Part shown: positions 31,320 to 57,274 of the stretch, one piece after another
Layout of the letters: every line of letters begins with the position of its first letter
Position numbering within the stretch: the first letter of the stretch is position 1
Origin: Sphaerolaimus hirsutus
Lineage: Eukaryota; Nematoda; Chromadorea; Monhysterida; Sphaerolaimidae
Assembly: GCA_964036195.1 (NCBI GenBank)
Contig: OZ038453.1
Location: 26,870,352-26,934,351, forward strand
Reading direction: 5' to 3'
Length of the DNA stretch: 64,000 nucleotides
The notes under the pieces: model-generated
Database searches by the model: none
Seen by the model: only the letters and a program-made list of their open reading frames with translations
Told to the model about the DNA's origin: nothing
Translations under genes and position numbers: made by a program

Positions 31320-31886
31320 GACAAAATTTCAGTGTGGTAGAACTCAACTTTTTCACCGAACATTTATTTGTACTCATACTTTCGCACAGAATAAATTGCA
31401 GAGTTGTTAGAATTACTGAACTTTTTTAAAAGTATACGTAAACGTAAAGTATTTTTTTTACTCACCACAAAGTATAGAAAACGTAAAATACTTTTTTTTT
31501 ACTCGTACGTACGCGTAAATGTGGGTACTTTTTTGTGAGTGTAGAAACGACTATTTTTGTTCATAGAATGTGTAAAAGTGGGCACTTTTTCATACGTGTA
31601 CAGCACAACGTATGTTTTTCTATAAGCAAGTGACAGATTATATAGTTTTCAAGGTCTCTTTTTTCTAGAAGATAAAAATCAACGTTCTCCCGACTCTTTT
31701 ACCACATCCGTTGTCTCCACAACCATTTCGATTTGGTTGCGAATTTTGATATTTTTAAAGGCACTACCCCGCATATCTAAAATATTCAATGGATCCACTT
31801 CTGTAAATACATAGCAGTGTAGTTACTGTATAAATATGTCCCACATTGAATTTTCATAAATACATTTTCCGTACGCGTACGCTTTG

Positions 31887-32646
31887 TTTAAAGTACCTAC
31901 CTAGGGTAGAAGTGCCAACTTCCCAACCCTAGTCTATTTTGAAAAAGAGATTTAATTTAGATGGTTTAATTAGGTATAAGCATAAAGTTTTGACTGCGGT
32001 ATTTTAATTACTTCTGGTATTTGTGATTAGTTGTTAAGTTAAGTTGTATTACTGAGTCGAAATTGTTTAAAGAACCAACAATTTTATGTAGCAAATCATG
32101 AACGAATCCACCAAAGAAAGGCAGTCAAATTGGATGTGAGAAGTGACATTTCGGACATCATGAGCGGTGGCTCAAATGTCCAGGTTGTGAGTCCTTTGCA
32201 GCTTCACTTCCATCTACAGGCCTGGTCTTTTGGTAATTACCTTTTTATCTCATCGATGTATTTCTTATTCCAAAAGCAAAACTCCAAGTGACTGCCGTTG
32301 TCTGGTAGTCGGCGCAATTAAGTAAAAACCTATTCACATGCAGTATTGCCGAGTATACTGCTGGTGATTACAAAGGTTTTGTGGGCGCGCACGTCTTCAA
32401 AATGCCATAACACTCAATCATGTGGAGCGAAAAAGCGTCTCTAAATACTAAATATAATGAGACTATCTCCTAGTTTGCGACAAAAGTCTACTGTTTGTGT
32501 AATGGTAATGACGTAGATTATAATTAAGAAATTCCTATCTTATATTTGCTACTTATAGATAGTGTTTGTGAACTAGTGTTGGGAAAATTAAATAAAATGA
32601 AAATTTTAGGGTGTTTGCACTTGTTCAGTGCGCCTATACCCTTACA
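31887..32646 (-). repeat. 3' LTR of the giant retrotransposon
   Basis: 760 bp. Its left edge abuts TSD copy CTTTG at 31882-31886 and its right edge abuts a purine-rich tract. Confidence 0.92.
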
Positions 32647-38800: not shown

Positions 38801-39961
38801 GTGCCTAGTACATTTGTCATCAGTGACATTCATTGGCAAGATGTAATATGTACCATTTGCCAGTGGCCTGCAATACCAGACATGTATCACATTGCCGGTT
38901 GTTTTGGCAGTGAGATGCTGGTGATCCAAGATCATTTGCAGCGTTTCTGTTGGGTCAGCTTTTAGTTGGCTAACAGTGACTGCATGAATTGCCTTCATCA
39001 TTTTGCAGTGATTCACCATCAGAAACTCAAAGTAGAATCTCTGAGCTTGGTCAGCATGCAGCTGCCTCAAGGTGGCTTGGGCTGCAACTACATCTGACGA
39101 GGCTTTTTCTTCAGGCATTATGGTCAAGCCTGTTAGAGATGCAATTGATGTTTCATTGGTCACCACGGTTTCTACTGCGAAACCTTGGTCACTGATGTAA
39201 AGTTGCTGACCACAATCCATTACTTCTTGTGGATTTGTGAATGTCAATGCCAATGTGCCCCCTTCTGCAATCCACTGTCTTTGTAAACTGATCCCTGGGG
39301 CTGTTTTCCATGCTTCATATTGGCATTCCACAGTGGTGTTGGCTTGCCACATCAAAAGTTGATGATCTGGCAATGCACATTGGTTTTCAATGTAGCGGCA
39401 CTTAGAAACATCAGTTCCTAATGTGGACCACATTTGTTTTCTGTCTGATCTCTGGTAAACTGTTGTCTGTTGCAGTGCACATTGCGTCACAATGTGGCTA
39501 ATCGTTTTGCAGCATCTGAATGCTCCATGAGTTGGTAATTCTGGTGCTGGATACCAAGTCCGGTACTGGCCTTTTCCCGACCTTTCCATGTCATTTGCTT
39601 TCATGCATTGCTGGTAATCGATCATTCTTTTGCATTCTATTGCTGACACTTCCACAGGTATGTATGTCACATCTTTATATGAGGTATATAAAAATGTTGT
39701 GTACTTTGTGTGATTTTCTTTCCACTTTGTGCACACATATGCTTTTGTCACATGCTGGTATGTGTTCTTGCGATAAAGTTTCAATGTCAGATGACTTGGT
39801 GCTGCAAACTCTGCCGTAGATGAGAAGTGGCAATTGATGTCGGGTGGTATCGCATAGCTGACTGTTGGTGATTGGTCCACAGGGCACACCATTGGGTCCA
39901 TGGCACGGGCCCAATGAGTGCTGATCAGGAAGGCTAGTGTTGTCAGGAAACATGATGCCAT
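32834..39961 (-). CDS. pol: Env-like/Pol polyprotein: Env, 2 x protease, RT, RNase H, integrase, dUTPase-like, 2375 aa
   Basis: Residues 1-23 form a signal peptide. About 24-533 is a Cys-rich, N-glycosylation-rich ectodomain, and 534-558 a transmembrane segment, so the N-terminus is Env-like. Two retropepsin-like domains follow: DTGAQCSVIG near 692 and DSGAQCSLID near 831, each with a later hydrophobic-Gly motif (AIIGNDIL, LLLGGDLL). RT about 1190-1400 has YMDD at 1303. RNase H has DAA and YTDSRAL near 1520. Integrase has a zinc-binding His/Cys region (CTHC near 1767) and catalytic D1801, D1860, E1896, an exact D,D-35-E spacing. The C-terminal 90 residues include VLVPQGKQVITTGIEVSVPP, resembling the dUTPase fold, without the usual PRSGLA-type motif. 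Env normally follows pol. Here it precedes pol in the same frame with no stop, so processing or splicing must separate them. No frameshift was seen. Confidence 0.88.
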   Translation of the reverse strand: MASCFLTTLAFLISTHWARAMDPMVCPVDQSPTVSYAIPPDINCHFSSTAEFAAPSHLTLKLYRKNTYQHVTKAYVCTKWKENHTKYTTFLYTSYKDVTYIPVEVSAIECKRMIDYQQCMKANDMERSGKGQYRTWYPAPELPTHGAFRCCKTISHIVTQCALQQTTVYQRSDRKQMWSTLGTDVSKCRYIENQCALPDHQLLMWQANTTVECQYEAWKTAPGISLQRQWIAEGGTLALTFTNPQEVMDCGQQLYISDQGFAVETVVTNETSIASLTGLTIMPEEKASSDVVAAQATLRQLHADQAQRFYFEFLMVNHCKMMKAIHAVTVSQLKADPTETLQMILDHQHLTAKTTGNVIHVWYCRPLANGTYYILPMNVTDDKCTRHIPIQFAAMEDGPFFLDPATLMVIKWTFEVPCQEVDNQIFHIHNTTVKYAAKTGELHQVQSLPRLPLAYVHQHQNEKEPATNQAIGLHPYKQHPQWGTKAHTNDLLQTHHELLTNLGLQPGNTADENTRIVAQNMVITGATEANSHKWLKIALSLIVIPIMAIWCFIAVKCCLPLAIRARLTHNALDMAMSFSYWLWQQVTTLTRCYQAVQRFRNRHPQHQPVPTTATVTVETMPENSEALTRSNRRPRPIAALTRGKTITINGETIELRPVETINMIAATEAEESENMPSTTMLVNKHRINAILDTGAQCSVIGKGLASALDLRPEPEKSQIHLTSVTGHEIPIEGITTAEIQLMGYHGTHSLFISNELSDQAIIGNDILRPVGKLTIHYDVDRTWAESSEQTANGQPYEKHINQTKSVKLVNKHNLLYVATSIANTTLAALLDSGAQCSLIDERIVNALGLGPVIPLAENDKLVSITGHSLVISGRIYVHLIIGGQSLQHKFYVAQNLNDELLLGGDLLRRFRRLTICYATCRVWVGSRQIGLGPAGDSISTEGPPAARWPVKLINQEFIRSNTRKRISVMIAGLTSGDPQQNLVFIPKPAEEIRGLSLPYLRVPGGHDMLCIDIYNMSLQHRCLPKGACIGHMELAGTAIPLAPQIVRSTHVDTINNVNQEFRSHVQKPHTDKKPDEIDLQHLTGDQLEERLQKLETVWEFGDKLTDKRKEELKNLLKQFHDCFALDYGELTTITGNIYHRIRTGEKGPIQLPPRRTPPHLREVVEEQLNSMLRSGVIVKSNSPWRAAIVMVKKKDNTHRLCQDFRELNLITEGDAFPAPDQAEIFDRIAELNPKFFSSLDCLGAYWQLPMHPDDAEKTAFAVANGQLYHFTRMPFGLSTAPASYARAITTIFEPIINKSVLAYMDDLLTASPTFEKHLQDLTAVLERARMYRLKFKAKKCIFGVGECIFLGFKLSGDGLEQDESKTKTIENFPLPQNRTGVKSFLGMCGFYRRFIKNYSIIAKPLVELTKESVEFEWTEERLNAFEALKKAMVTAPVLAFYRPELELIISVDAACPPVHGYGAVLEQRQPETGEIRPIAFASTQVADNRNDFNAMIREAEALAWILEKYKHYCMGRKVTVYTDSRALAYLMHAKGHSQYITRICLTLAGYDLDVKHRPGKTNVVADALSRAPTGRDSELLTKIDNPPMEIELDDSKIPKPRPWWKKLPPYVPNEEIPDPYKGPRKTTNTEPEVAPIRVMAVLRSPQDSGECTPAQLNNWRDRLSSAQKHDQETQRIIHQMEQGEKPCFGPHFAYPDLLAYVRNPTHPAEKAKRTRVFVPKTLRMQMMAEHHDTVVGGHLNARKVLSLMAQHLYWPEMQRDVYNYIKTCTHCQTRNCPVPKTRLPMPETQPRLQPFEWIHIDHLELPTSYSGHSYVFLVVDRCSRWADGWAVERTDAKTAAQMLVENWICKYGAPAYMTSDCHASFTGEIFTEITKLFQIRKITTAPFHPQSNGIVERANRSLLGLLAACMRDLDHHDWPTWLPFALMANRMAVHSATGVSPYMCVFGQLPRTALAADLKPKQFETMMQYPTYMHTLLVNMRRIWAYTNAKNQEQNDTNKAIHDKKCADTQKIHLGCLVLKKSFTIPKDQTGKTRDVWVGPYMVTKLTGDPPKTVYLQKWNEPDSPSIKFPMMLVKMWHPRDDVFPTFGHGDPAVQQEEQVPQQPDQMAGAVAPPTDVSQDATKTNENARKQADPSVPSQSKPFMMTGGLESSASEDEELPVLTKYPTGQPRAMRYNLRLNPKKKVIRMIRANKRPENDEIGALYSELLGHTASKWKATPLPSGGSMEYETEIHEIQETANEQQPRQRTMGLVPTTHPVVTPNRPHQLAVRASTTFAVCTNHFNNTLQIKPRCPMVLVPQGKQVITTGIEVSVPPGMAIRVINGKDDVHFKILEHTYTTGQHIVNIWYLIDTRKEFSNQDTVACLQAHQTLKISTN

Positions 39962-40534
39962 TTCGAAGCCTGCGACGACTGATTTACGAAATGATGATAG
40001 AAAAAGTTCAATAATAAAGTTTAAGACTCATGGCGAGTCCTGGTAAAGTACCATTACACAATCATGATTAAGTGATACAGATTTATAATTTTATTACATT
40101 TATTATATTAAGTCTACATAATAAGTAAATAAGTTATTGTATACCCATTTAAGCTATAAGTTCCTAAATTAAGTTGGCATATAATCTATGGGATAAAATC
40201 TAAAATATACCTAAAATAACATTATCTGCTAGCTAAATGTGCAGCTAAATGTGCTAATCACAGTATATAAAGAATATTTATGTGGTCACTAATGGAAGGA
40301 ATTATAGTAAGAATAGATTTCAGTTGATTTTTGTTTGAATTGTAAAGGTATTTAAAATTTTTATTTTGATTGTTTGATCAAGTGAAGTCTATTCTAAAGA
40401 ATCACATTGGATCATTACTTAGAAATTTAAATCTTTGGCCGGACAAAACTGAGGAGAAATTAAAGAGGATATAAAAGTATTAAATAATATTTATGAATAA
40501 TATTTCTCCCAGTTTTGTGTATGCACTATTGTGC
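39962..40534 (-). other. spacer between helicase and env-pol ORFs
   Basis: 573 bp, AT-rich, no ORF. On the minus strand a possible splice acceptor (GTCGTCGCAG) lies 9 nt before the env-pol ATG, which could serve a spliced env-pol message. Confidence 0.4.
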
Positions 40535-43500
40535 CTACTGGCCAGTTTCTTGGTTGTTTAATTCGAAAAAGTCAATTGGATTCTCTGCAGCCACACACAA
40601 TGACAGGTCGTCCTTGCCCAACAATGCCTTGGCTTCAGCCACTCTGTCCTTTGTCATGATGAATGCTCCAGTTCTGGCCACTTGTTCAAACAGTTGCTTC
40701 CATCCCCTTGCAGTCTTTGTCAATGTGAACATTGGTTTGAAGTCCGTGATGATCACAATGGATCGTCTCTGCCTTGTCAGTGCCACGCACAAGCGCATCA
40801 TGTTTGTCAGGTGTGTCAATTGGCTATATTTGGTATTCATTGTCCATCCTGGGACCAGAATGATGTCTGATTCTTGAGACCCTTGTGCAATGTCACATGT
40901 GGTCACTCTGTAGTCCAGATTTGGCATGCCCTCCTGGCTGTGGTGTTTGGCCAGCAGGCAACATCCATCTTGGAGGTCCGACTGCAGTTCTTTGTAATAT
41001 GCCAGGATCCTGGTCTCAGCCACACCATCCCAGCCAGCGGCCTTGTACCATTCGCTCATGAAAGTGACAAACTGGTCCCTGGTGCGGTCACAGCGTCTGG
41101 TCACTTTGTTTCCATCAGTTGTCTGTACAACCACATCCTCTGTGTTCACATCTAGCCAGTAGATGGGTGCCAGGTACTGCTTTGTGCCATCTGGCCTTCT
41201 CTTGAACAGCAGTGGGAAACCTGGTGGCTTGGCTGCCAGGAATTCTGCTCTGGTCTGGTATTCAATGGGTGCCTCCAGGTGCCCATTGTAAATCAAATAT
41301 TTCACCAGGCCTGCATGTTCTACTGAGGCCCGGTACACTTCCTTCAGTCTGAAGCGCCTTCTTCTGCCCACAATTGAGCTCACTCTCTCCAGGCCACTTT
41401 CATTGAAAACTGATTCCATCACTCTTCTGATTGGAGTCTGCCCCAAATTTGGCTTTCCAAGTTGATATTCATCGCCAAGTAGCAAGACAATGAAGCGCCT
41501 GCTGATCCTGTCTTCACTGGTGCTCAACAAAGTCAGAAGTGCACACAGCTGCAGTTTGGTGATTTTTGTGGACTCGTCCACAACCAGCATTGAAAATCTG
41601 CATTCTCTGAGTTTGCTCAATGCCGTGCTGGTGGTTGCACTGACAATCTGGTACTGGTTGTGCAGTGTTCTGTCCAGTGTGGCAGTCTCTTCTTCTTTTT
41701 CATCTTTGTGTTTTTTCATTTCTGCTATCCATTCTGGTGGAACTGCCTCACCTCTGTGCAGCCTGCACCCTGTGGGCATTTTGCCTTTGCGGCCCTGTTC
41801 CTGCTGTTCCATTTTGCGAGAGGTTGCCTTCAATCGGGCATGCAACCATGGGACACTGCCTGACCTGATCCATGCATCCAGGTCATCAGCTAACCGCTCC
41901 ACTGCCTCATTATCTGTGGCTGTGATCAGAACCTTGGTGGCATATGGTTCTTGCCAGTGTCTGTGGAGGCCAGCTGCCAGGTGCTCCTGTATGGCCTGTA
42001 TGGCCACTCTGGACTTGCCTGCACCAGCCGGGGCTCTGACTGTGATGCAGTTGACATTCACTCTCAATGCCTGTAGCACTTCGTACTGTTTTTGATTCAT
42101 GCCTTCAGGTCTTTCTGTTGGATAGTCATATTGTGTCTGGTCAATGTTGGTTGCCACAATTTGGTTGATTTCTCTCAAGCGATTTGGCAGCAACACTTTC
42201 ATGATGGTCAACTCTGCCGCTGTCTTCCATGGGTTCATCAGTGCATACACTATATATGTGTATGTTTGCTTGTCTTGAGCATCATCTATTCTGTTGTCTG
42301 TTCTGATGCAAACTTCACTTTGGTCCATTTCAATGTGCTTTTTGAGGTAGTGAAGGGCAGTTTTGGCCAGCACTGCCACACTCAATTGCTGTTTCTTGCC
42401 ATCCTGGCAGGGTGCCACAGCTGTCAGTGTCCCTGATGATTCCAGGTTTGGCTGCCTGAAATTTACTTTCACTGGTGTGCGGCTGGTCCAGGGGATCTGG
42501 GTGTCCATTGGAATTTCAGTTCTGAATGTCAGGTATGAGAAATCCTCTGACCTCATTATGGTGAATTTGTTTGTCCATGGGGTTTCTCTGTTCCTTGGCT
42601 GATTCATCTCTTGAGTCATTTTGGCTAGATGGAATTCATCAAACAATGCACCCATTGCTTCATAAATCAACATCTGCTCTTCAAATGACTTGATGGCAGC
42701 TAGTTCATCTGCCCAATGCCAGGCCTGCCAGTACATATATTCTATCCTGGCTTCTTGGTGTTGCTGGGTTGACAACACCTTTCCATCAGCATTGTGTTCA
42801 TATCCAAAGAATGCTAGGCATTGTAAATCCCTGAGTCCTTCAGTTGTCTGCAGGAGTGGCAGGAAAAACTGTTCTTGCAGCATCAGTGCACTGGTGGGGA
42901 ATCTCACAAAGGTGTCTCTGATTGGTGGGACAGTTTTGCTATTCCTCCAAATTTCAATTGGTGCTGTTGATGCCAAATCTGATGTCTGCCATAATTTTTG
43001 AATGCCTTTCACGCTTGGGTATATCTGATCTTTTTCTGCGATCCCTGGCATCCAAAACAATGGCTGGTTTCTTTGCAATGTGTCTTCAATCACTCTTGGA
43101 ATGGTCTTGTCACAGATCCAGACCTCCTGTGTCTTCTTTCTGATCACTCTGCCCTTGCCAACTTGGTGGGCTTCACCCAACTCTCTGATTTTGCGCAGGG
43201 CATCCACTATGGGAATCACTCTTCCATCGATACTCATTTTGCCAATGATGTCTGTCAGCATCAGGATTTCACATCCATTCCATCCTGTGCCTGTGGCGTA
43301 CCTGCCAATAGACAGATAATAGGTGGACACATATGTTGCCCACCTTTTTAGCCTTCTCAAAGGCACTTTGATCTGCAGCTGCACCCATTTGCCATGTTCT
43401 ATTGTCACAGTTGCCTCAGTGCCAATCAATAGTTCCCATGCAATCTTCTGCATCAGGTATCGCAGGTCTGCTGTTGCTATGTAATCAGCGTGCACAATTT

Positions 43501-43924
43501 GCAATTCTGGGTGGATCTTTCCATCTTGCATCATTTCTTGGGCATATATGACACCATTTCTTGTTGGATTTCCATGTGGGATGAGTGCCATTTGTCGTTT
43601 GTTTGTGCCTGGTGGATTTGGATGTAACTGCCTTCTCCTCAGATCTGTCTCAAATCCAGCCATGATCAATTTTCCTTCAATTAGCTCTTCAGCAACTTGC
43701 AACTGTTCTGGGTCTGGTGGATCTGTTCTTTCTGGTGGAATTTCTGATTCATCATTTTCCACTGTAGTCAACTGGTCATTTCCTGTTGGCACATCCGGAC
43801 TGGAGCATAACATATCCATTGGGTTATCCGGTTCACTGTTGTCTGCTTCCGCTGTGTCCATCTGGTCAGATTCTACTGGTACTTCTCTCCATTCACCATT
43901 TTCTCCCAAGTCCCAATCATACAT
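40535..43924 (-). CDS. SF1 (Upf1-like) helicase-domain protein of the giant retrotransposon, 1129 aa
   Basis: The C-terminal half has SF1 helicase motifs in order: Walker A APAGAGKS at about 631, motif II VVDEST near 783, motif III LLGDEYQL near 815, an AQGSQESD motif V-like element near 1015, and motif VI VALTRQRRS near 1047. This order is that of Upf1/Dna2-type SF1 helicases. The N-terminal 600 residues start acidic (EPDNPMDML) and hold no domain I recognise. The ORF is intact and lies between gag and env-pol in the same orientation, so it is probably translated from element RNA, perhaps spliced (a TACAG acceptor lies just before the ATG). Possible roles are unwinding during reverse transcription of a very long genome or evading RNA decay. 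Both are inference. A helicase is not part of ordinary LTR elements. Confidence 0.82.
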   Translation of the reverse strand: MYDWDLGENGEWREVPVESDQMDTAEADNSEPDNPMDMLCSSPDVPTGNDQLTTVENDESEIPPERTDPPDPEQLQVAEELIEGKLIMAGFETDLRRRQLHPNPPGTNKRQMALIPHGNPTRNGVIYAQEMMQDGKIHPELQIVHADYIATADLRYLMQKIAWELLIGTEATVTIEHGKWVQLQIKVPLRRLKRWATYVSTYYLSIGRYATGTGWNGCEILMLTDIIGKMSIDGRVIPIVDALRKIRELGEAHQVGKGRVIRKKTQEVWICDKTIPRVIEDTLQRNQPLFWMPGIAEKDQIYPSVKGIQKLWQTSDLASTAPIEIWRNSKTVPPIRDTFVRFPTSALMLQEQFFLPLLQTTEGLRDLQCLAFFGYEHNADGKVLSTQQHQEARIEYMYWQAWHWADELAAIKSFEEQMLIYEAMGALFDEFHLAKMTQEMNQPRNRETPWTNKFTIMRSEDFSYLTFRTEIPMDTQIPWTSRTPVKVNFRQPNLESSGTLTAVAPCQDGKKQQLSVAVLAKTALHYLKKHIEMDQSEVCIRTDNRIDDAQDKQTYTYIVYALMNPWKTAAELTIMKVLLPNRLREINQIVATNIDQTQYDYPTERPEGMNQKQYEVLQALRVNVNCITVRAPAGAGKSRVAIQAIQEHLAAGLHRHWQEPYATKVLITATDNEAVERLADDLDAWIRSGSVPWLHARLKATSRKMEQQEQGRKGKMPTGCRLHRGEAVPPEWIAEMKKHKDEKEEETATLDRTLHNQYQIVSATTSTALSKLRECRFSMLVVDESTKITKLQLCALLTLLSTSEDRISRRFIVLLLGDEYQLGKPNLGQTPIRRVMESVFNESGLERVSSIVGRRRRFRLKEVYRASVEHAGLVKYLIYNGHLEAPIEYQTRAEFLAAKPPGFPLLFKRRPDGTKQYLAPIYWLDVNTEDVVVQTTDGNKVTRRCDRTRDQFVTFMSEWYKAAGWDGVAETRILAYYKELQSDLQDGCCLLAKHHSQEGMPNLDYRVTTCDIAQGSQESDIILVPGWTMNTKYSQLTHLTNMMRLCVALTRQRRSIVIITDFKPMFTLTKTARGWKQLFEQVARTGAFIMTKDRVAEAKALLGKDDLSLCVAAENPIDFFELNNQETGQ

Positions 43925-44166
43925 CAGTCTGGTTTCACCACTGTATGTGTCACTTGCTGATGTCTCTGGCTGGTTGTCTGCTTGATTGTGGGGTGTATTT
44001 TACTATTGTGAGAATTTAAAATTGAAATATACTAGACTTGGTATATGTTTTATGAAGACATACTGGTTGATTTTGTAAATTTTTGTAGAGTTGTGTGAGA
44101 AAAGAAAGCATTTTGCCATTTTGTGACATTGGTCACAAATGGCCCATCACCAGATTGATTCCCATG

Positions 44167-45867
44167 TTACTCTGTTTCATCTGGAATCTCCTCCAGACTC
44201 AATCCTGGATTAGTTTCTTTCAGGGCTGCCAGTACTGTTGGCAGGTCACTCTTAGCCACTGTCAGGTTGTATTCATCCACTTCAGAGTCAGATTCTGGCT
44301 CAGTGAATTCAGTGGCACACTCATGGCTGACCTGCTGGACCATTCTCGTGGCTTTGTGTTTAGTGGTCAGGTCGGAGCTCATGTCAGTGGCTTTGTCCAG
44401 ATACTTATCTTTCTGGCGCCTGTCCATTTTGTCAGCATCACTGGACTGTTTTGCTTTGTCCTTTTGTGCTTCCCTTGGCACAAATCGTGGAGAGCGCTCC
44501 TTGTAACCGAAGCGCTGGTCCCGAGGCCTATTGTTGTTGACCCTGTAATTATTTCCTGGTCTGGCAGGCATTTCTGGCTTTGGTGGCATCAGCCTTCCAG
44601 CAAAATTGACTTGTTGCACATTGCTGGGTACAGGGAAGCGCCATTGGTGTGCTGGTGTTTCATCCAGCTTCACACCATCCCCGTACGTGCCAAAGCTGTT
44701 TACCAGCGCGTTACTGGGCGCCCAGCCGAGACCAGAGCTTCTCATTCTGGTCGCACATTCCTCTAAGCGTTCCAGCATTGTCATTAGCAACTGGAAGTCA
44801 CTTGGTGGCTCCAAGGATTGGAGTGATGCCAGAGCCATCAGCTCATCTGACATGCTGCAGAATATCTTTTCTGCAGTTTTCTGTGTAATTTGCTCTGCAG
44901 GAGCATTTGGGTTCAATGCACGCACCATGCGATGCACATGGTCTGCATACCTAGTGATCGGTAGATGCCCTTGTTTGGCAGCATCCAGTTCCCGCAACAT
45001 TGCATTTCTTTTTGCAGGGCTATTGAACCTGCGTTCCATGGCTTGGCGCAGTTCATGCCAGCTGGTGCGCTGTGCTGGGGACAATTCCTCATAGCACTGC
45101 AGCGCTGGCCCTGTCAGGAATGGTGGCAGAAAGTCACACATTTCCTCTTCAGTCAGGGCCAAGGATTTTGACAGCGTGACAAAACCCTCCACAAAAATAG
45201 CCCAGGATTGATCTGGCTGGCCTGTGAACACATTCACCCTGCGTTGCAGGTTTCCAAGGCGCATTTTCCACATCATGGTGTTCACAACATTTTTTCTGGG
45301 ATCTGCAGGCGCCCTTTGGCCACCAGTTGGCACATTGGCCTGTTGCCGTTCAAACTCCGCCCTTATTTGGGCGCGAATTTCACGTGCCAAGTTTGGGGTA
45401 GCCTGCTGTTGCCCATTGCCTGTGGGCAGGGCATCACTCACATCGATTGGCTGGCCTTGCCCTGGCATGGTTACAGCATAAGTGGTTATGCCCTGCTGGC
45501 CATCACCATCTTGGTTTGGCGGCTGCTGTTGCATTTCCCTGACAATGTCTTCAGCCGTTTCCTTGACTGCTTGTCCATTCACCTCCAACGCTTTCAGCAG
45601 CACATCTACTTTCATGTCTGCCATCACTTCTTGCAGTTCCTCTCTGATTGAATCTGTCAATGGGAGTGTCTCAAGGAGCACCACCATTGAGTTGTATGAC
45701 TCTTGCAGTGGTTTCAGATGTCTCTCCTTGTCCCTGTTTGCCTGAGTGATTAGTTTCACTGCCTCAGTCTCAGTATCTCCCTGTGAGCTGTTGGTGCCAG
45801 CCCGTGCCATTGCACCTGGCTGCTGGACAGCCAGTGCCCTCTGGGCACTACCTGAATCTGCATACAT
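44167..45867 (-). CDS. gag: Gag-like capsid protein of the giant retrotransposon, 566 aa
   Basis: Residues about 175-370 match the Ty3/gypsy 'retrotransposon gag' capsid pattern: WAIFVEGFVTLSKSLALTEE, FLPPFLTGPALQCYEEL, WHELRQAMERRFNSP and a helical C-terminal half. The N-terminal 170 residues are polar, with a possible coiled coil. The C-terminal 150 residues are basic and disordered (repeated Arg/Lys/Asn), ending with an acidic tail (ESDSEVDEYNL). No CCHC zinc knuckle is present, so RNA binding probably relies on the basic tail. It is the first sense ORF after the long 5' region, and the helicase ORF starts about 240 bp downstream. It would assemble the virus-like particle. Confidence 0.8.
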   Translation of the reverse strand: MYADSGSAQRALAVQQPGAMARAGTNSSQGDTETEAVKLITQANRDKERHLKPLQESYNSMVVLLETLPLTDSIREELQEVMADMKVDVLLKALEVNGQAVKETAEDIVREMQQQPPNQDGDGQQGITTYAVTMPGQGQPIDVSDALPTGNGQQQATPNLAREIRAQIRAEFERQQANVPTGGQRAPADPRKNVVNTMMWKMRLGNLQRRVNVFTGQPDQSWAIFVEGFVTLSKSLALTEEEMCDFLPPFLTGPALQCYEELSPAQRTSWHELRQAMERRFNSPAKRNAMLRELDAAKQGHLPITRYADHVHRMVRALNPNAPAEQITQKTAEKIFCSMSDELMALASLQSLEPPSDFQLLMTMLERLEECATRMRSSGLGWAPSNALVNSFGTYGDGVKLDETPAHQWRFPVPSNVQQVNFAGRLMPPKPEMPARPGNNYRVNNNRPRDQRFGYKERSPRFVPREAQKDKAKQSSDADKMDRRQKDKYLDKATDMSSDLTTKHKATRMVQQVSHECATEFTEPESDSEVDEYNLTVAKSDLPTVLAALKETNPGLSLEEIPDETE

Positions 45868-48800
45868 ATTAGTAGATTACTGGAAAGCGAGCTAAATTGA
45901 AATTATTTCACTAAGTATTATTGATTAAAAATGTGGGAGTTTTTGCAGTAAGTTATATAGTTTAAATAGAACATAAATAATTGGGATTGCAATTACGATT
46001 ATGCATAAAAAGCAAGTGATATCTTTGCAAAACATATACCAAGTTTTGTATTTTTGTGACCAACTTGTTGTAGGGTCAGAAGACATCTTGGAGTGACCAC
46101 AGATTTGTAATAAATTTGTTATTGAAGTGCGGGAAATTTGATAAAATAGGAAATTGTTGGTTTAAATAGGTGTTTTTTTAGATATTTTAGTGCCTAAAAT
46201 GTGAATATTTTGTATGAAATAAGTCAATTTATTACAATAATAAAATTACAATGTTGCAAGCCTTACTAATATAAATGCATGCTAGCGCAAATATGAAATT
46301 TGTTGAAATTTTGCTGTAAGGTGAGTGCGAATTTATATAAAATTGACATATGTAAGCCTTAAGCCAGTGCAAAATGTGATGAAATTTGTCTTAAATTACC
46401 TAAATTTATGAGAACGTGTTCCTATGTGAGCGCAAATTTGCATTGAATTTAAATGAAAATGATGTGCTAAGTCCTAAGCAAGCATAAAAGTTGTGAAATT
46501 TGGGAAAATTATACCTAATGCAAGCATATATTTGAATAGAAATTGTATAATGACCAGGCCAGTTTGGTGATTTTTTATTACCTAATGTGCTTAAGCAATC
46601 TATAGCAATCAATAGCAATCTCCATCGCATCCCCTCCCCCAAGGGAAATACCATGCCCCAGGGTATAAAGTAGAAAAAAAAAATGTACAAAAATTGGACA
46701 TAAGGGGAATAAAATACCTAGGAGAGTAAGTATGCAGAGTGAGGGTGTAGGCAAGCAAATAGAGGATCAATAAATCAGTCAAATTAGGTCTCTAAATGAG
46801 TGGAAAAACCAACTTGGGTCTGGGTGTAATCTGGGTGAAAAGTGGTTGAGGGGGGAAGTTTTTGAGACCAAAACCAAAGGAAATCAAACGAAAATGCAAC
46901 AAAACAAAACTACAAAATGAGAAAATCAATATAAAATATATAGAAATCAAATCAAAAAAATAAATTTAAATAAAGTCACCTAAACCAGAATAAAAATTGA
47001 AGTGAAAAAAATCCCAATCCCGAAGTTCTAGATTTGAAGGTTTTTTTGAGAAAATTTGGAATTTTTGAATTTTGAGAAAAAGTTAGAGTTGAGTTAAATT
47101 TATTGAATATTTTACATCACTGGATGTTTAATTGTAGTGTAGTATCCTATTTAAACCATAAAAAGTGGTTTAACATGTTTTGTCAGAATGTATCCAAAAC
47201 TTGATTTTCTCCCAAAAAGAAAAGTAATGCCCGGTCAAGCCAGAACTCACTTGTTTCTGAAATCTTGGAAACTCTTCCACATGGGGCCTCCTTTGTTTGC
47301 CTTGGGTGTTCGAGGTGTTTATGGTGTGTTTGAGTGCTGTCCTAACCACTTTTACTACTTTGAATATTTTTGAAAATATTTGTTTCCGCGCAGATTGTTC
47401 TCCGCCCAGTGAAAAATGGTTGGAAAATTTTGGATCCCAAAAGGTGCTGAAACGAACACAACAGGTTTGTGGGTGTAAGGTGTTTAATTTCGGGTGGTTT
47501 TTACTTGTGTTTTTGTTTGTTTTAGTGCTTTTGGCACTCTGCCAAGTTTGGCCGATTTTGAGAAAAATAGTCTTTTCCCCGGGGAATTTTGGTTTTGCTT
47601 ATCCCTTCACAATTTTAACCCACTCACAGATCCTTGGACACTGGTTGTTGAGGCTCTCTGGCTAAAACTCCTGTTTTCTGGACTGGACTGGATTCCATTG
47701 CTTGGCTCTGCTGGACGATTTTGTGATTTTTGTTTCTCTTGTGGTTCTGCATTGAAATAAAAAGAATTATTTGTATCTACCTACCTTTTATATGTATGTC
47801 AACTGAAAAAGTTGACACATGCATATCTACACCTTTGCATTTATTTGTTGATTTGTTGCTTGAGCGCGGATGGAACGTTGAAGGAGGGTTGGTTTTTTCT
47901 TTTGTAGTCAGAGTCAAATTTGAACAAAAAGCTGAAGTTTTAATGCCTAACTTTGTTATCTAAGAGTGTGTGAGAATAACTTATTCATTTTTGAGGGGTT
48001 TTATTCCCAAAAGAACACATGCTTTCAAAACTCACCCTAAAATCGGCATTATTCTAAGGTTTTTGTTTAAAACTAAAGTTTTTACACAATGCTATTGCAT
48101 TTGGTTAGTATTTGAAAGCTGTGGGAGTTGACACAAGCTTTCATGTGTGTGTACCCAATTTCTTACCCATCCTCTCGGGTTAGAGTTGCCAGAAGCTCTC
48201 TGTGGCCTTTACTAGCTTGTATAGGGCTACTGGGTCCTGCCTATTGGCCTTTCACAAGGTGCTAGGGGGTCGACCCTTTAGTTGTGAGTCAATTAAGGTT
48301 AATCCAGCAGAGTGTGGCTTGGTAGTAATAGCTTAGAGAGGGTGGTCAGAAATAGCTACACATACATTTTTAAACTTTTAATTGAGCATTGTGTTAAAAG
48401 CTTTGGGTTTGATTCTGAGTAGTTTTTGAAGCTGATTGGAACGTTGGTTACACACTGGTTGGTTTCCTTTTCTTTGAGTTTGTTTTGTGGGTCTCAAAAG
48501 GGGTGTGCACCTCCCCTCTCGCGATTTTTTTTTTCTGGGACCCTGAGTATCAAGGTGATCCGATAGAATTAATCCTTGGGTTTTTAGGTTTAAAATGAGT
48601 GGTTAAGTGTCCCTATAGGACTTACGGTTTTAAAGTTATCGTTAATTGGAGTTTTAATGTTTTGTCAGTTTTTTAGAAAAGTGCGAGTTGCGTTAAAGTT
48701 CGCTAAAAGTTCACGTTTAAAATATCGTTTGGCATTTACCCAGTTTTAGTTGAATTTTATTTATGGGGGGTTAATTCAAGCATTCCTTATTTACACAGTT

Positions 48801-49400
48801 CAAATTTGTTAGAATGTGGTGCCAGATAAGCTGGCTTCAAATTGGGGAAATATGTTACAGATATGTTTAAGATGGGGGGGTCCCAACTTTTAGAATCTTG
48901 TCAATCTATTTGACTGGGTTGAAGCTGCATTTCTTATCGCAAATAAAGTGTGAAATAAACAGATGTGAATCCTTTAAGGCACTGTAAAATGTGTTGACAA
49001 ATCTGTGCTTATTATGGGTGAATCACATTATCGATAAGAATGTCCTTGCTAAATGTGTAACAGTTTAACGAAATTGGAGCTTTGTAAATGCTTCATTGAC
49101 TGTGTTTTTAATTCAATAAATTTCTGAAAGTTGAAAGTTTTTGAGATGATTTTGAAAGTTGTTTTGGTGAGTTGAACAGTTTGAAATCGTTTTGAGAATA
49201 CTTTTGAAAAACTTATAAAATGTAAAATAAAATGTCTGTAAAATGTGTAGATTTCTTCAAGAATCAAAATATCTAAATAGAAATCGAATATATTTATTTC
49301 AAGATTACCTAGTTTCCTAAAACTGTTCATATTTAAAAATCGCCCCCCCATGCTGAAACTTATCTTGTATCCAATTCCATATCCAGGTTCTGCTGTGCAG
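45868..49400. other. 5' region of the retrotransposon between gag and the antisense genes
   Basis: Mostly AT-rich with no long ORF in the sense direction. On the plus strand, 47188-47314 (ATG, MYPKLDFLPKRKV) and 47394-47464 (DCSPPSEKWLENFG) could be GT-AG exons in phase, followed by an open stretch at 47527-47757 in a third frame. They might be the start of the ubiquitin-like gene or a separate one. Phases do not close, so I leave them unannotated. Confidence 0.3.
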
Positions 49401-51846
49401 TATCCATCTGGCTGGGTCGGGTTTTCTGGGCGGCCTGTGCAGTTTGGACCGGGCTGATTTGGTCCTAAGGTGTAATGGCACTCGCGAGCAGTTGCAGCAG
49501 GCTGCCAAAGTCCCCTGGGCGCGCCACATCCCTGGTGGTCCATTCCTGGTGCTCTGGCATGGTGACCATTGTCCACCCCTGTTTGAGCTGAATCGCTTTG
49601 GGAAGATTACCATGTGTCATGAAGTGAGCATGGGGTGTTTTTGATGTAAAATTGGGGTTGGAATGTGAATTTTACTGGTAAAAAAGGTTATTTTGAGAAA
49701 GTAAATTGAATTTGTGGGGGGTGGTAAATATTTTCTTGGAAATGGAAATGCAAAGAAATATCTGACAGTTTTTACCCCCCTTTTTACAGGATTTCGGCCC
49801 AGTGGTGTCCACTTCCAGGCCTTTGTCCACTACCACCTGGCAGAAAACCGAGTTGGTTGGATTTCGGGATTTGAGTATTTTGTTTGTTACTTGAGTTTTA
49901 AAGTGTGATTTTTGAAATTGAGTTTACCTGGAGTTTACCTGGGTATTCACTGGTTAATGCTCAATCTTTCCATGACTTACCACTGTTCTAGGCCTTCAAC
50001 TGCGGTGACTGTTGGCAACCTGCCAACTGCGGTGGCACCTGGGACTAGATCCAGCGAGTTGGTCGAGTTGGGCGTTGGGCCCAGGTGAGTGGTGTGGTAC
50101 AGTGTTTTGGGATTTTTTTTAGTTAGTTCTTGTTATTGGTTTGTGTGGTTTGGTTGACAGTGGGTTGTGTAGGTTATGTGTTTTGTAAATTTACCTGGTT
50201 CACCATTTTCTGTAGAAATGGCATACCTGGGTGTAGTCTTCCTTTCCTTTTTGTAGGTTGACTACTGAGAGGGCTGCGTCCTCCACCATCCTGGCACAGG
50301 ACCTGTTTGATTGGATTCGCGTGACCCTGACTGAAAAGTGGGTTATAATTTTGGGTTATTTGTCATGTTTTAAATGAAATGGATGTGTTTCAAAGCATTA
50401 ATTTATTAAATATATAACCTAAATTTTATTTTTTGTTTGTTATAGTTTGGCGCCAACCAAAGCTGAGGTGGCTGTTCCCAGTCCACCTACCAGCAGCACC
50501 ACTGTGGCCACAACTACTCCGGTTTTCTTGAAGTGAGTATTTTATTTAGGATATTTTTGGGTAAATATTAGATGTTTTTGTTGTGGTTTATGTTGGTTGG
50601 TTAGTTGTCAGTGGGTTGAATTCACTACAGCCTTACCGTTTTCACTCACCTCAGGTGTAGAATTCTTACCCTTGACAATTCACAATGGAATAAGTTACAT
50701 AAGTTAATTACGATTTTTATTATGCAGGGTGCAGATTTTCTGCCATGGACTGTGTGCTGGGCAGGTGGCTGAAGTTGCTGTGGAGCCTGACATGAAGGTC
50801 AGGGTGCTGCACAATGTGGCTGTTCATCACTTCGGCCTGGGCGTGGAACCTGTCAGCTTGATGGACAGCCAGCACCGCTATTTGGCACAGCATCGAACCC
50901 TCCAATATTATGGCATTCAGACTGGGGACAAATTGATTGCTTATGGTGAGTATGAGTTCAGTTGGGGTTGTGGTTAAAAATGGTTGATCTATAGTTACCT
51001 ATTTTGAGTGCTATTTTGTTGATTGCAGTGAGGCAGTCCACAACCACCACAACAACAATGGCCAGCAGCAGCACAGATGCCAGCAAACCTACCACTCTGG
51101 TTACTACATCCACACCTTTGATCACCAGCTCGCTCCTGCCATCCACCACCACTTTGGGCAGTGAAACAACTGCCTTGCTGCCCACTGTCTCTGGCACCAC
51201 TTCTGGCAGTCCATCTGGTGGCGATTCTGATGAGTCTTATGATGTAAGTGGTGTTGTTGGTTTTTAGTGTGTGTTGTGCATTTTGGGTTAGCTGAGTGAT
51301 CAAATGTTATGTGTCACAGGTGTTTGCCGTACTGGTGGTGGGTTTCTCGATCCTGGGCGCAGTCATTGGCCTGATGGTGACTGCTTGGTCGCTGTTTGGC
51401 ATTTACCAGAAGGTGCAATCTCACCTGAACCAGTCCAGTGACATCAGCTTGCACTCCCAAGAACTGGCTGTGGCTGACGTGCCAAGTGCCACTGGTGAAG
51501 AAAGTGCTAATCCCGAGGGTGAGAAATATTAAATTTATCATTTTTAGTTAGGTTTAGGTAGTGTTAAGGTATTTTAAAGTTGATATTATTTTTGTTTTTA
51601 GATTGCCAGTCGATGGCCAGCTACAGATCCGCCCTGGACGGAATGCAGATCACCAATGAGACTGTGGAGATGTTCATTGGCATGCCCACACAACCCTCGT
51701 GAGTGAAAATTAGTGTTTTATTTATCAAATTGTTTTGTAGTTATGTTACCTGTGAAATTTGTTATTTTACCTTTGCTTTTTTATTTTTTTCCAGCTCTTC
51801 ACCTGCCTACTTGGTCGACTGCGGGGTCTTGGTGTCCGAAGTGTGA
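49401..51846 (+). CDS. antisense cargo gene: membrane protein with ubiquitin-like domain, ten exons seen
   Basis: Exons 49401-49623, 49790-49851, 49992-50084, 50257-50337, 50446-50532, 50728-50945, 51029-51243, 51320-51518, 51602-51698 and 51795-51846 all have GT-AG borders, and every junction keeps frame. First come about 95 residues of unrecognised N-terminal sequence with a few Cys, then a Thr/Ser-rich linker. Exon 50728-50945 is ubiquitin-like: it starts VQIFCHGLCAG, has VEPDMKV where ubiquitin has its VEP strand, and ends RTLQYYGIQTGDKL like ubiquitin's RTLSDYNIQ. There is no Gly-Gly terminus. A mucin-like Ser/Thr stalk follows (51029-51243), then one transmembrane helix (VFAVLVVGFSILGAVIGLMV) and a cytoplasmic tail of about 90 residues. 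It lies wholly inside the retrotransposon, opposite to gag-pol. The first exon and promoter are not identified. Confidence 0.75.
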
Positions 51847-52216
51847 GAGAGTATGGAGTGATTTGGAGTAAACTGTGTAAAATGTGTTTTTGTAAATTGT
51901 AAAATTTCAGGGCATTGAAGTTAGGAGTAGAGTTAGGTTTATTTTCTTTGGAGACAAGTTTAGTGAAGTCAGTGAAGCTTTATATTTTTTGTGGTAAAAT
52001 GTAAAATGTTTATGTGAAGTGATTTAATTTTAGTAAAATGTGTAAAGTAGCCTGTGTTTTTAATTGTTTGGTTTAGAATTTTTTGTGTTGGTTTAGTTTT
52101 TAAAGCGGAAAAGATTGAGTGGTGAAGTGTAAAATGTGAAATTTTGTCTTAAGTGATTGCTAGTTTTGAATGTTTAGAATGTCTATTGGGTTAGTTAAAA
52201 TAAATTGCAAATGTCA

Positions 52217-52237
52217 AATAAATGAGTATATAATAAA
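52217..52237 (+). terminator. candidate polyadenylation signals of the antisense gene
   Basis: Two AATAAA hexamers lie about 370-390 bp after the stop of the ubiquitin-like gene and before the Ly6-like gene. Confidence 0.4.
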
Positions 52238-52383
52238 TACTATGAATTTGGTAGACACCTGACTGACACATACAGTCTTACTGCAATTTTATCAGTTTTT
52301 GTATTTAGTGGTTACCTTGATGCCTGGTTATCAGTTCTGCAACATGGCTGGCCGCCTGCCCCTCATCCCTGGCATTTCTGCTG

Positions 52384-52955
52384 ATGCTTCCCGCTACCGG
52401 AAAACGACTGGAGGTTGGCAGTGGCACTCCAGACACAAGTCCAGCTGGTGGCTGGTGGGGCGCTGTTGATGGGGCTGTATGGGTATTTACCCTGGCCATT
52501 TGCTACTGGTTAGTGTTTTCTAGTGGGTGTCACTCAGTGCAAAGTAAGTCAGTATTTAGTGGGAAACATGTGCATTTTCAGCGTCCACCTGCCATGACTG
52601 TGTGGTGATGCCCAACTGGCGCCAGCATCCAGACAGCTTGCCCTGCGGCCAGTGCACTGGGCACTACTGCATCAAGATTGACACTATGCTCGGCAGTGGG
52701 TTTCAATTGTCACTTACCATTTCCTGTGGCATTTCTACTATGTATTTCCATCTTTCAGCCGCGCTGTCCACCCAGAAGACCTGCGGTTTTGGCGCCATGC
52801 CGCTGGAGGATACCTGTGAGACTCGCGAGTGGGAGTCTGGCATTTTCCAGCACCATTGCTATTGCACTGGCGACCTGTGCAATTCCGGCCAGATCGTGAA
52901 AGTGCACTTCATGTTGGCGCTGGTGGTCATGTTGGGCATGATTTTGTGGATTTAA
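52384..52955 (+). CDS. antisense cargo gene: Ly6/uPAR-like (three-finger) GPI-type protein
   Basis: Exons 52384-52543 and 52582-52955 join in phase (GTAAGT donor, TTTTCAG acceptor). A hydrophobic segment (VFTLAICYWLVFSSG) serves as signal sequence, though 36 residues precede it from the chosen ATG, so the real start may differ. The mature part has CHDC, CGQCTGHYC, TCGF and the terminal CYCTGDLCN pattern characteristic of Ly6/uPAR folds, then a hydrophobic C-terminus (FMLALVVMLGMILWI) as expected for a GPI signal. An in-frame segment of about 76 bp (52690-52760) could be a GC-AG intron. It sits 540 bp downstream of the ubiquitin-like gene on the same strand, inside the retrotransposon. Confidence 0.7.
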
Positions 52956-54468
52956 GTTGGGTGTAAATTGTAAATAAGTGCATTTAAAGCTTGGCAATCT
53001 CACTTTTCATCTATCTCACTCTGTGTTTGGTTATTTACATTTTTAACATTTAGAGGACATTTTTGTATTTGAGAATTTTCCAGTTTGAGGCACCATGCAG
53101 TGGCATGATTTCTCTTGTTTAGTGATTAGTGATTTGCTAGTTACATGTATATTTTGTAATTCTAAAGCATTTGTGTTATGCAGCGCGTAACAGTAAAGTA
53201 AATTGAATTAGAAAAAACGCGTTAACTGTCATACCTTTGCCATGCTTGGCATTCATACAAAAAGCAACAACTTTGCAGTGTTAGTCCCAACACACTACAT
53301 CAACTAGACAGCAGTTAGGAATGGCCGTAATTCCTGACCCTCCTGCTGGCCTGCTGTCAGGTGGCCACAGGAACCCATCCTGGGTGTGGGCATTTTACAT
53401 ACACCATCAACGGTTTGCGGCACAACGGTTTGAGCAGGTGTCAACCACAGCGGATGCACTTGTTGTTGGACTGTGGTACACGCCTCTTCCATGTCGGCGG
53501 CATGGGGGGGACAGCTTCATCAATGGGGCCCTGGCAGTGCATCTGCCACTAGCGCTGGGTGATGCATGCAGGCAAATTCTGCAACCTAGGGACATTTGGA
53601 TTGCAGGTGTGCACTCCAACATGAGGCTGTAATAGGCACACCCCATTACCTTGGGTATCACAGCCCTGTTTGCTGAATGTTAGCATTGTGCTGTCCGGTG
53701 CTGTCTAGTGACTTCCCACCAGACATTTCTATCACTAATTAGTTATAAATACAATGTTAGAATTTCTTACTCGCGGTTAAATGTTGCGCGCAAAATACGA
53801 TTTTTCAGCATCAATGTAAATACATAATAGATTTTACTACAAGTAAAAACAAGTTTTCAGTTGCATGAACAGCGTGTGAAATAAAACTGTTTTACTCTAA
53901 AGTGTGCATGCAATATTTGATTCACTATGCGGAAATAAAATGGTTCTACATGTGTAAACATACCTAAATATCTAAATCGGAATTCAGAATGAAAAGTTCC
54001 ACTCACTTCTTTCCTGGCATCATATTTAGTAGGTCGATGACTGGTGTTGATCAGGCACTGGTCCTCATCCTTCCAAGGTTTGAGACAGGAAATAATGATT
54101 CTGTGAAGCTTCTATTTATTAATTACTGTTTTTTGTATTTTATTTTTGTCATTGAACAAGTCTTGTTTACTTAATTTTTTGTTTGACTTAATCAATTAAT
54201 TAACTTAATTTAAGTATTGAGCAAAAGTGTTTTAACCAAAACGGAATTCTGAAAAACAGAATTTTGTAAAGTATATAATTGAACTGCAAACTAAAGGGAG
54301 ACATACCTTCACTTACCTTTTGTTTGAGCAGTTTTTATTTTCTCTGTCTTTACTTACCTGTATTGTAGCCATTACGATTTTGCATTGCCAGAAATTACAA
54401 TGGAAAATATATCATTTTTGGACTTTAATACTACAGAGAAATGGGGTTCCAACGGTTGTGGAACGAGG
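52956..54468. other. 5' untranslated region of the retrotransposon, possible small antisense ORF
   Basis: Plus-strand 53321-53632 is open for 103 codons (MAVIPDPPAGLLSGGHRNPS) and GC-richer than its surroundings. It might be a third cargo gene, but no domain or signal is recognisable and the minus strand is also open there. The rest is AT-rich with no coding signal. Confidence 0.25.
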
Positions 54469-54489: not shown

Positions 54490-55249
54490 TTTAAAGTACC
54501 TACCTAGGGTAGAAGTGCCAACTTCCCAACCCTAGTCTATTTTGAAAAAGAGATTTAATTTAGATGGTTTAATTAGGTATAAGCATAAAGTTTTGACTGC
54601 GGTATTTTAATTACTTCTGGTATTTGTGATTAGTTGTTAAGTTAAGTTGTATTACTGAGTCGAAATTGTTTAAAGAACCAACAATTTTATGTAGCAAATC
54701 ATGAACGAATCCACCAAAGAAAGGCAGTCAAATTGGATGTGAGAAGTGACATTTCGGACATCATGAGCGGTGGCTCAAATGTCCAGGTTGTGAGTCCTTT
54801 GCAGCTTCATTTCCATCTACAGGCCTGGTCTTTTGGTAATTACCTTTTTATCTCATCGATGTATTTCTTATTCCAAAAGCAAAACTCCAAGTGACTGCCG
54901 TTGTCTGGTAGTCGGCGCAATTAAGTAAAAACCTATTCACATGCAGTATTGCCGAGTATACTGCTGGTGATTACAAAGGTTTTGTGGGCGCGCACGTCTT
55001 CAAAATGCCATAACACTCAATCATGTGGAGCGAAAAAGCGTCTCTAAATACTAAATATAATGAGACTATCTCCTAGTTTGCGACAAAAGTCTACTGTTTG
55101 TGTAATGGTAATGACGTAGATTATAATTAAGAAATTCCTATCTTATATTTGCTACTTATAGATAGTGTTTGTGAACTAGTGTTGGGAAAATTAAATAAAA
55201 TGAAAATTTTAGGGTGTTTGCACTTGTTCAGTGCGCCTATACCCTTACA
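54490..55249 (-). repeat. 5' LTR of the giant retrotransposon
   Basis: 760 bp. On the minus strand it starts TGTAAGGGTATAGGC and ends GGTACTTTAAA, so the 5' end is canonical TG but the 3' end is AA rather than CA. It is nearly identical to 31887-32646 by eye. Confidence 0.92.
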
Positions 55250-55780
55250 CTTTGAAAGTGTACGCGTACAAGTGCGTACGGTATTTTTTTGAAAATTATA
55301 TGTAATTGTATTTACCGCGTACTCGCGTACGCGTATTTTTCGAGTAAACGTACGTACCTTTTAACAACTCTGATAAATTGATACTTCTAGATTACATTCT
55401 AAAATGTTTGCCCTATCAAACCAATGCCTTGATAATAAAACCAATGCCCCGAAGGGGGGGGGGGGTATTCCGAGGGGGGTTATTATTTCCCCAGTCCGTT
55501 TTGAGGGGGGGGGGGTTAATTCGTGGAGTGGGTTAATTCAGGGGGGGGATAATTCGAGGTAATACGGTATAAAACATATTTTTAATCAGGCCATGTTAAC
55601 TTGGATACAATCCATTTTGCTAATGTAGCAGATTTGGCTGGGTGCATTGACTTGACAACTGATGAGTTGACAAATGAGTTGACATAGTCAGTTTGACTGG
55701 TGTAAGCCTTCAAAGGAAAGCCAAAGTTCCATACACTCTTAAACGTTGTGTTTTATGTAAAAATTTGATAACATTGTATA

Positions 55781-57055: not shown

Positions 57056-57274
57056 TCACACAATGTTTATCACTGGTGTTGAGATCATCCCCTTTTCACA
57101 CAATGTTCTATGTTCCATTTTGATGGTATTTAATCTGTGTTCTGAGACGTGATCGGGAGTGATGCACATCAATACACTGTTTTCATCATCATCGCATTTT
57201 ACGCGACCTTTAGAGTAAAAGTAAATACCCAACATGAACTCTGGATCAAATGTCACTGGGTCATGGAATTCCAT
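57056..57274 (-). CDS. second copy of the 72-aa ORF
   Basis: This is the paralogue of the ORF at 31101-31319 in copy 2 of the tandem duplication. Length and stop are identical, with two substitutions. Confidence 0.3.
   Translation of the reverse strand: MEFHDPVTFDPEFMLGIYFYSKGRVKCDDDENSVLMCITPDHVSEHRLNTIKMEHRTLCEKGMISTPVINIV

What the first reader, a model, noticed from the sequence alone, without database searches (positions are those of the whole stretch)
49401..52955. Intron-containing genes carried in antisense by a retrotransposon
Ten exons of one gene and two of another splice in phase on the plus strand, inside an element that integrated as one unit through a minus-strand RNA. Sense introns would be removed during retrotransposition. 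Antisense introns would not be recognised in the genomic RNA and can survive. This is a neat route for a retroelement to carry regulated cell-surface genes.
Basis: partly seen in the sequence, partly recalled or inferred. Interest (0 to 1): 0.92.

Follow-up and report, generated by a model that had tools for sequence, protein, structure and literature searches.

The report
Intron-bearing antisense genes in giant retrotransposon
A giant virus-like jumping element carries, back to front, two genes still cut up by introns, and its other copies in the same genome show that these genes travel with it and that their coding parts are conserved, so running a gene antisense looks like a natural way for a retroelement to carry introns.

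Summary
The element is one 23,363-bp minus-strand Gypsy-type insertion (31887-55249; 760-bp LTRs with 1 mismatch; duplication CTTTG). The same genome gave 27 further matches to a gene-A piece; 25 of 27 fetched stretches hold LTR sequence; all 24 readable outer LTR edges have different flanks. In the 12 rows (window included) with every gene-A exon, all ten introns are present with GT..AG; exons show 8 distinct indels, introns 80; dN/dS is 0.27 for gene A, 0.31 (wide interval) for gene B. A 13-copy subfamily has decayed genes. Not shown: plus-strand transcripts, protein function, host origin (the paralogue search never ran), host species. Closest in what I read: planarian Burro.

The parts
31887..32646 (-). 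3' LTR (760 bp)
   Evidence: 99.87% identical to the other LTR, 1 mismatch
54490..55249 (-). 5' LTR (760 bp)
   Evidence: further copies
31882..31886 (.). target site duplication CTTTG, left
55250..55254 (.). target site duplication CTTTG, right
44170..45876 (-). gag ORF
   Evidence: PF03732, E 8e-9
40538..43999 (-). ORF with superfamily-1-type helicase domains
   Evidence: PF13604 8e-10, PF13087 1e-9
32837..40027 (-). single ORF: Monjiviricetes-type fusion glycoprotein, two aspartyl protease matches, RT, RNase H, integrase
   Evidence: scanned in three pieces: PF24664 4e-10, PF13975 (2 stretches), PF00078, PF17919, PF17921, PF00665
49146..49166 (+). gene A exon 0: ATG, MILKVVL, start of signal-peptide-like sequence
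   Evidence: donor 4.5; length and GT kept in 14 of 14 aligned rows
49387..49623 (+). gene A exon 1, rest of signal-peptide-like sequence and Cys-containing ectodomain
   Evidence: dN/dS 0.11
49790..49851 (+). gene A exon 2 (weak donor)
49992..50084 (+). gene A exon 3
   Evidence: dN/dS 1.35 in this exon
50257..50337 (+). gene A exon 4
50446..50532 (+). gene A exon 5
50728..50945 (+). gene A exon 6, weak ubiquitin-like similarity
   Evidence: phmmer PDB E 0.04, PF00240 E 0.095; single-sequence fold uninformative
51029..51243 (+). gene A exon 7, Thr/Ser-rich stalk
51320..51518 (+). gene A exon 8, hydrophobic stretch (inferred transmembrane) and start of tail
51602..51698 (+). gene A exon 9, inferred cytoplasmic tail
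   Evidence: dN/dS 0.08
51795..51848 (+). gene A exon 10, ends in TGA
52199..52237 (+). AATAAA/ATTAAA signals starting at 52199, 52217, 52232, downstream of gene A
52582..52695 (+). gene B exon, Ly6/uPAR-like Cys pattern
52759..52955 (+). gene B last exon: Ly6-like end and hydrophobic tail
   Evidence: PF17064 QVR E 0.0033, below its cut-off
54352..54358 (-). candidate sense-strand splice donor (ACAG|GTAA) just inside the 5' LTR
   Evidence: score 8.7; GT kept in 24 of 24 rows, but 8 of 11 tier-1 rows have the weaker GTAAAT
45879..45898 (-). candidate sense-strand acceptor just before the gag ATG
   Evidence: rank 24 of 482 AG sites, score 2.4; kept in 13 of 13 tier-1 rows, no tier-2 row aligned. 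Of the stronger sites, AG at 46830 and 46717 is kept in 13 of 13 tier-1 and 2 of 2 tier-2 rows, AG at 46909 in only 3 of 13

Best explanation
This is an ambisense giant LTR element. Gag, a helicase ORF and an envelope-protease-RT-integrase ORF are read from the LTR on the minus strand. Two cell-surface-type genes are read from the plus strand of the integrated DNA, presumably from their own promoter. Spliceosomes recognise introns only in the plus-strand transcript; in the minus-strand genomic RNA they are reverse-complemented and not removed, so each new insertion inherits them. The genes were held by selection through many insertions. Shown: one integrated unit, many independent insertions that include the genes, retained introns, constraint on the exons. 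Inferred: plus-strand transcription and splicing, surface location, capture from a host genome, and removal of the whole gene block as a sense-strand intron to make gag mRNA.
For: Unit insertion with duplication. 27 further matches to the piece; LTR sequence in 25 of 27 stretches and gag in 25 of 27; the LTR search places a pair around L012 as well. 24 of 24 readable outer LTR edges have different flanks. Ten of ten introns with GT..AG in 12 of 12 complete rows. 8 distinct indels in 1364 exon nt against 80 in 1339 intron nt, Fisher p 6e-17, treating indels as independent. Pooled pairwise dN/dS gene A 0.27 (bootstrap 0.19-0.38), gene B 0.31 (0.12-0.83), in both the lowest of six frames; other frames of gene A 0.37-1.26. 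The gene-A frame has one stop-codon column over 12 rows, taken as the final TGA (codons split by introns and inserted bases not covered). Sense donor GT kept in 24 of 24 rows of both subfamilies.
Against: No transcript evidence: the one protein search with exon 6 found nothing (4 candidates, none E<=1). 4 of 12 complete rows have a 1-nt loss in gene A (L009, L013, L014, L015) and 2 of 14 aligned rows have large deletions. 13 copies with decayed genes amplified, so the genes are not needed in cis for copying. An LTR pair on C2 (7560041/7580830) has no match to the gene-A query. Exon 3 shows no constraint (1.35) and gene B's last exon little (0.67). Bootstrap intervals overlap between the annotated frame and one minus-strand frame of gene A (0.37, 0.25-0.50), and broadly for gene B.
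Confidence: 0.85

Rival explanations
1. Recent accidental capture: a host gene pair was picked up by one element (or inserted into one provirus) and has no role.
For: No relatives of exon 6 found among 5.8 billion proteins at the tool's sensitivity, so a single odd event was possible a priori.
Against: 27 further matches with the block in the same place, two subfamilies about 85% alike in LTR; dN/dS 0.27.
Confidence: 0.03
2. The block is passive cargo: constraint reflects past host function and the copies are pseudogenes carried along.
For: 4 of 12 complete rows have a frameshift and 2 of 14 aligned rows have large deletions; the second subfamily is decayed. Of 8 aligned copies whose two LTRs score equally or nearly so (window, L009, L011, L012, L014, L016, L018, L022), 3 are broken in gene A (L009, L014, L022).
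Against: pS of 0.071 against pN of 0.020 between element copies, hence after capture; indels about ten times rarer in exons; 8 of 12 complete rows have no frame-breaking indel.
Confidence: 0.08
3. The plus-strand sequence matters as RNA or DNA (antisense regulation, insulator, packaging), not as protein.
For: It lies in the leader, where packaging signals of retroelements lie (general knowledge); antisense transcripts may regulate some elements (PMC7264820, passages).
Against: Constraint follows the codons of the annotated frame; variable columns by codon position 49, 27, 72 of 447 each.
Confidence: 0.04

Closest known systems
Burro giant Gypsy-like elements of planarians (PMC6431247, section 7 read)
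   Same: Giant Gypsy-type element; envelope between gag and pol in one frame with pol; mononegavirus-type fusion glycoprotein; extra cellular-type domains, including a ubiquitin/SUMO-like motif.
   Different: Here gag and helicase are separate ORFs, no MATH/BIR/BCL2/ankyrin domains were seen in Pfam, the extra genes are antisense and have introns, and the host is not identified.
Antisense additional ORFs of plant Gypsy elements: Grande gene23, RIRE2, Retand (PMC7264820, passages)
   Same: Gene in antisense to gag-pol, present in most copies; for Grande, own promoter reported.
   Different: [quoted passage not shown] here 5' LTR to gag, 11 exons, membrane-type protein.
Host gene capture by crocodilian retroviruses, KIT-ligand and nectin3 (PMC4299795, passages)
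   Same: Cell-surface-type genes in a retroelement; purifying selection reported for KIT-ligand.
   Different: Described there as captured host mRNA; here introns are kept.
Envelope capture by LTR elements: Errantivirus, Anakin (PMC12440569, outline and passages)
   Same: Viral fusion glycoprotein taken up by an LTR element.
   Different: Concerns the envelope only.
Antisense spliced gene HBZ of HTLV-1 (recalled; not looked up)
   Same: Spliced antisense gene on a provirus.
   Different: As recalled: promoter in the 3' LTR and a short spliced gene rather than a separate multi-exon gene.

Membership tests
Ty3/Gypsy LTR retroelements | gag, and pol order protease-RT-RNase H-integrase | tested here: met
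   Pfam
Ty3/Gypsy LTR retroelements | 4-6 bp target duplication | tested here: met
   CTTTG both sides
Ty3/Gypsy LTR retroelements | LTR ends TG...CA (usual, not universal) | tested here: not met
   minus-strand LTR begins TG but ends AAA
Ty3/Gypsy LTR retroelements | position in an RT phylogeny | not tested
   no tree was built
Burro | envelope in frame upstream of pol, mononegavirus type | tested here: met
   an unnamed public protein, P0007, has the same order, its envelope only weakly alike (E 0.002)
Burro | one giant ORF fusing gag to pol | tested here: not met
   separate gag, helicase and env-pol ORFs
Burro | MATH, BIR, BCL2, ankyrin domains | tested here: not met
   none in Pfam scans of the three sense ORFs at E<=0.1
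Burro | closest RT relatives are Burro | not tested
   no record named Burro or a planarian among the 120 listed of 277 hits
[quoted passage not shown]
   block lies between 5' LTR and gag
Ly6/uPAR domain proteins (gene B) | significant domain match | tested here: inconclusive
   QVR PF17064 18.8 bits, cut-off 27.3; no Ly6 chain in the PDB search
ubiquitin-like fold (gene A exon 6) | significant sequence or fold match | tested here: inconclusive
   E 0.04, 0.095; fold pLDDT 41

The most novel reading that the evidence does not exclude
A family of ambisense, provirus-like retroelements whose second strand is a stable home for ordinary multi-exon nuclear genes: the gene block sits inside a sense-strand intron of gag, so splicing on one strand expresses gag and splicing on the other expresses surface proteins, while unspliced genomic RNA carries both onward.
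Probability: 0.5. Interest if true: 0.92.

Novelty: new variant of a known kind. Interest (0 to 1): 0.84.

Why it matters
Retroelements are expected to lose introns from genes they carry in the forward direction, and the retroviral captures that I looked up are of host mRNA. Here ten introns persist through many insertions, with constraint on the exons, most simply because the gene is antisense. It would be a natural counterpart of the reversed intron cassettes of retroviral vectors, and a route by which complete genes with their own splicing, and perhaps promoters, could move within and between genomes.

Tried and rejected
De novo chain finders did not discriminate; they are reported above as evidence against. 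The first try at the phase statistics timed out without output and was rerun with fewer shuffles. Helicase relatives: none at E<=0.001 in 7992 scored proteins and none in viral contigs. Exon-6 relatives or spliced transcripts: none. Single-exon folds were uninformative: pLDDT 41 and 57. Exon 1 shows weak similarity to antibody light chains (8 of 9 listed chains, E 0.07-0.69), kept as a lead only. Rfam at gathering scores found nothing in the window. Literature searches: in their listings I saw no animal LTR element with multi-exon antisense genes; only the top rows are listed and only open-licence papers are held. Dropped rows: L020 (anchor missing) from the exon alignments; L021 and L022 (large deletions) from dN/dS and indel counts.

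Full report
What is there. The window comes from a 348-Mb genome of 762 contigs. Two 760-bp LTRs, 31887-32646 and 54490-55249, differ at one base and are flanked by CTTTG on both outer sides. The element is thus one insertion of 23,363 bp. Read from the 5' LTR on the minus strand it holds gag, an ORF with superfamily-1-type helicase domains, and one ORF with a Monjiviricetes-type fusion glycoprotein, two protease matches, RT, RNase H and integrase. An unnamed public protein, P0007 (source given as ncbi), has the same envelope-before-pol order; its envelope resembles the window's only weakly (E 0.002).

The antisense genes. Between the 5' LTR and gag lies an 8.6-kb leader. On its plus strand ten exons from 49387 to 51848 are open in one continuous phase, ending in TGA. 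An eleventh, first exon at 49146-49166 gives MILKVVL and runs on in phase into VLLCSIHLAGSGFLGG, a signal-peptide-like start judged by eye. Exon 7 is rich in Thr and Ser, and exon 8 has a long hydrophobic stretch; polyadenylation signals follow at 52199-52232. The ten acceptors average 5.26 against -3.72 for local AG sites, the nine donors 3.37 against -4.59 for local GT sites; 0 of 5000 draws reach either. 0 of 10,000 within-exon shuffles stay open throughout. Exon GC is 0.53-0.62 and intron GC 0.32. Gene B has two exons with a Ly6-like cysteine pattern and a hydrophobic end; its splice sites are weak and its first exon was not found. Two home-made chain finders based on codon use gave no support.

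Other copies. The 601-bp piece 50000-50600 has 28 places in the genome: this one and 27 others. I fetched 9.9 kb around all 27. 25 of 27 stretches hold LTR sequence (missing: L012, whose LTR pair appears, and L020). 25 of 27 hold gag sequence (missing: L020, L033). Fourteen belong to the window's own family (88-99% alike in the query piece), thirteen to a second subfamily (73-79%; LTR about 85%). In the 24 copies, window included, in which the outer LTR edge can be read, the flanks all differ; one pair shares a 53-nt stretch at different offsets, and L029 is flanked by sequence like the element's own inner end. These are independent insertions, not a segmental duplication.

Introns kept, exons constrained. 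Thirteen of the fourteen family-1 copies could be aligned with the window (L020 could not). Two of them, L021 and L022, have large deletions. In the twelve rows with every gene-A exon, window included, all ten introns begin with GT and end with AG, 12 of 12 each. There are 8 distinct indels against the window in 1364 exon bases and 80 in 1339 intron bases (Fisher p 6e-17). Pooled pairwise dN/dS is 0.27 for gene A (447 codons, bootstrap 0.19-0.38) and 0.31 for gene B (102 codons, 0.12-0.83); the other five frames of gene A give 0.37 to 1.26, the lowest of them with an overlapping interval (0.25-0.50), and for gene B 0.47 to 0.89 with broad overlap. Variable columns by codon position in gene A are 49, 27 and 72 of 447 each. 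Constraint is uneven: exon 9 0.08, exon 1 0.11, exon 6 0.19, but exon 3 1.35 and the last exon of gene B 0.67. 8 of 12 complete rows have no frame-breaking indel in gene A; L009, L013, L014 and L015 each have a 1-nt loss.

The second subfamily. In the alignment none of the 13 has the first exon whole or a recognisable exon 5; none matches exons 6-10, and the match to gene B is cut to 51-61 nt. Frame breaks are shared by several copies. The one pair of LTRs placed for this subfamily is 11.7 kb apart (C1), too short for the window's full set of sense ORFs, while gag is open in 10 of the 12 parts seen. So this looks like a non-autonomous derivative, copied with decayed antisense genes. It shows that the genes are dispensable in cis. 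It also suggests that the introns were present before the two subfamilies split, since the splice dinucleotides around exon 1 and exon 3 are still there in 13 of 13.

How it probably works. An intron is recognised on one strand only. If the gene points against the LTR, the packaged RNA holds the introns reverse-complemented, and they pass into the next copy; the plus-strand message from the integrated DNA can then be spliced normally. The leader also holds a strong sense donor about 130 nt inside the LTR, GT kept in 24 of 24 rows of both subfamilies, though 8 of 11 family-1 rows have a weaker form than the window. An acceptor just before gag, of middling strength (rank 24 of 482), is kept in 13 of 13 family-1 rows, as are stronger ones at 46717 and 46830; the one at 46909 is kept in only 3 of 13. 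I infer that gag mRNA is made by removing the leader, so that the antisense genes lie within a sense intron. Transcription in either direction was not tested.

Known relatives. The planarian Burro type is closest in what I read: giant, Gypsy-like, envelope upstream of pol with mononegavirus-like fusion protein (PMC6431247, section 7 read). It differs in its fused giant ORF, and that section reports no antisense intron-bearing genes. Antisense ORFs are known in plant elements, between pol and 3' LTR (PMC7264820, passages). Captures of host genes by crocodilian retroviruses are described as captured mRNA (PMC4299795, passages). That introns in the genomic transcript are removed before packaging is stated in PMC2266726 (passages).

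Limits. No host paralogue search, no transcript data, no species name, protein identities weak. The LTR search scored 40 of 100 candidates, so counts are lower bounds, and one LTR pair on C2 lacks a match to the gene-A query. Codons split by introns were not checked for stops, because I left out joining the exons.

Noticed in passing
40538-43999 (-): A helicase ORF between gag and the env-pol ORF of a Gypsy-type element; no relatives at E<=0.001 in 7992 scored proteins.
   Followed up: partly
32837-40027 (-): Envelope-like glycoprotein at the N-terminus of the pol ORF, and two separate aspartyl protease matches in that ORF.
   Followed up: partly
31887-32646: The LTR starts with TG but ends in AAA on the element strand, not CA.
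   Followed up: no
29919-31398 and 55449-57353: Two similar repeats (93-96%) lie close outside the two ends of the element; the right one is flanked by an identical 68-bp direct repeat.
   Followed up: no
13616-22545 (-): A non-LTR retrotransposon ORF with RT and an endonuclease match just below cut-off, and two further long ORFs without Pfam matches.
   Followed up: partly
G000:C2:7560041-7581607: An LTR pair 21.6 kb apart that did not match the gene-A query; may be a copy without, or with a changed, antisense block.
   Followed up: no
L029, outer edge of 5' LTR: The first 30 nt of flank equal the element's inner end next to the 3' LTR, suggesting a tandem or nested copy.
   Followed up: no
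51849-52580: The spacer between genes A and B is more variable between family-1 copies (76-88% identity) than its surroundings; in L012 it holds an insertion of about 1.4 kb.
   Followed up: no
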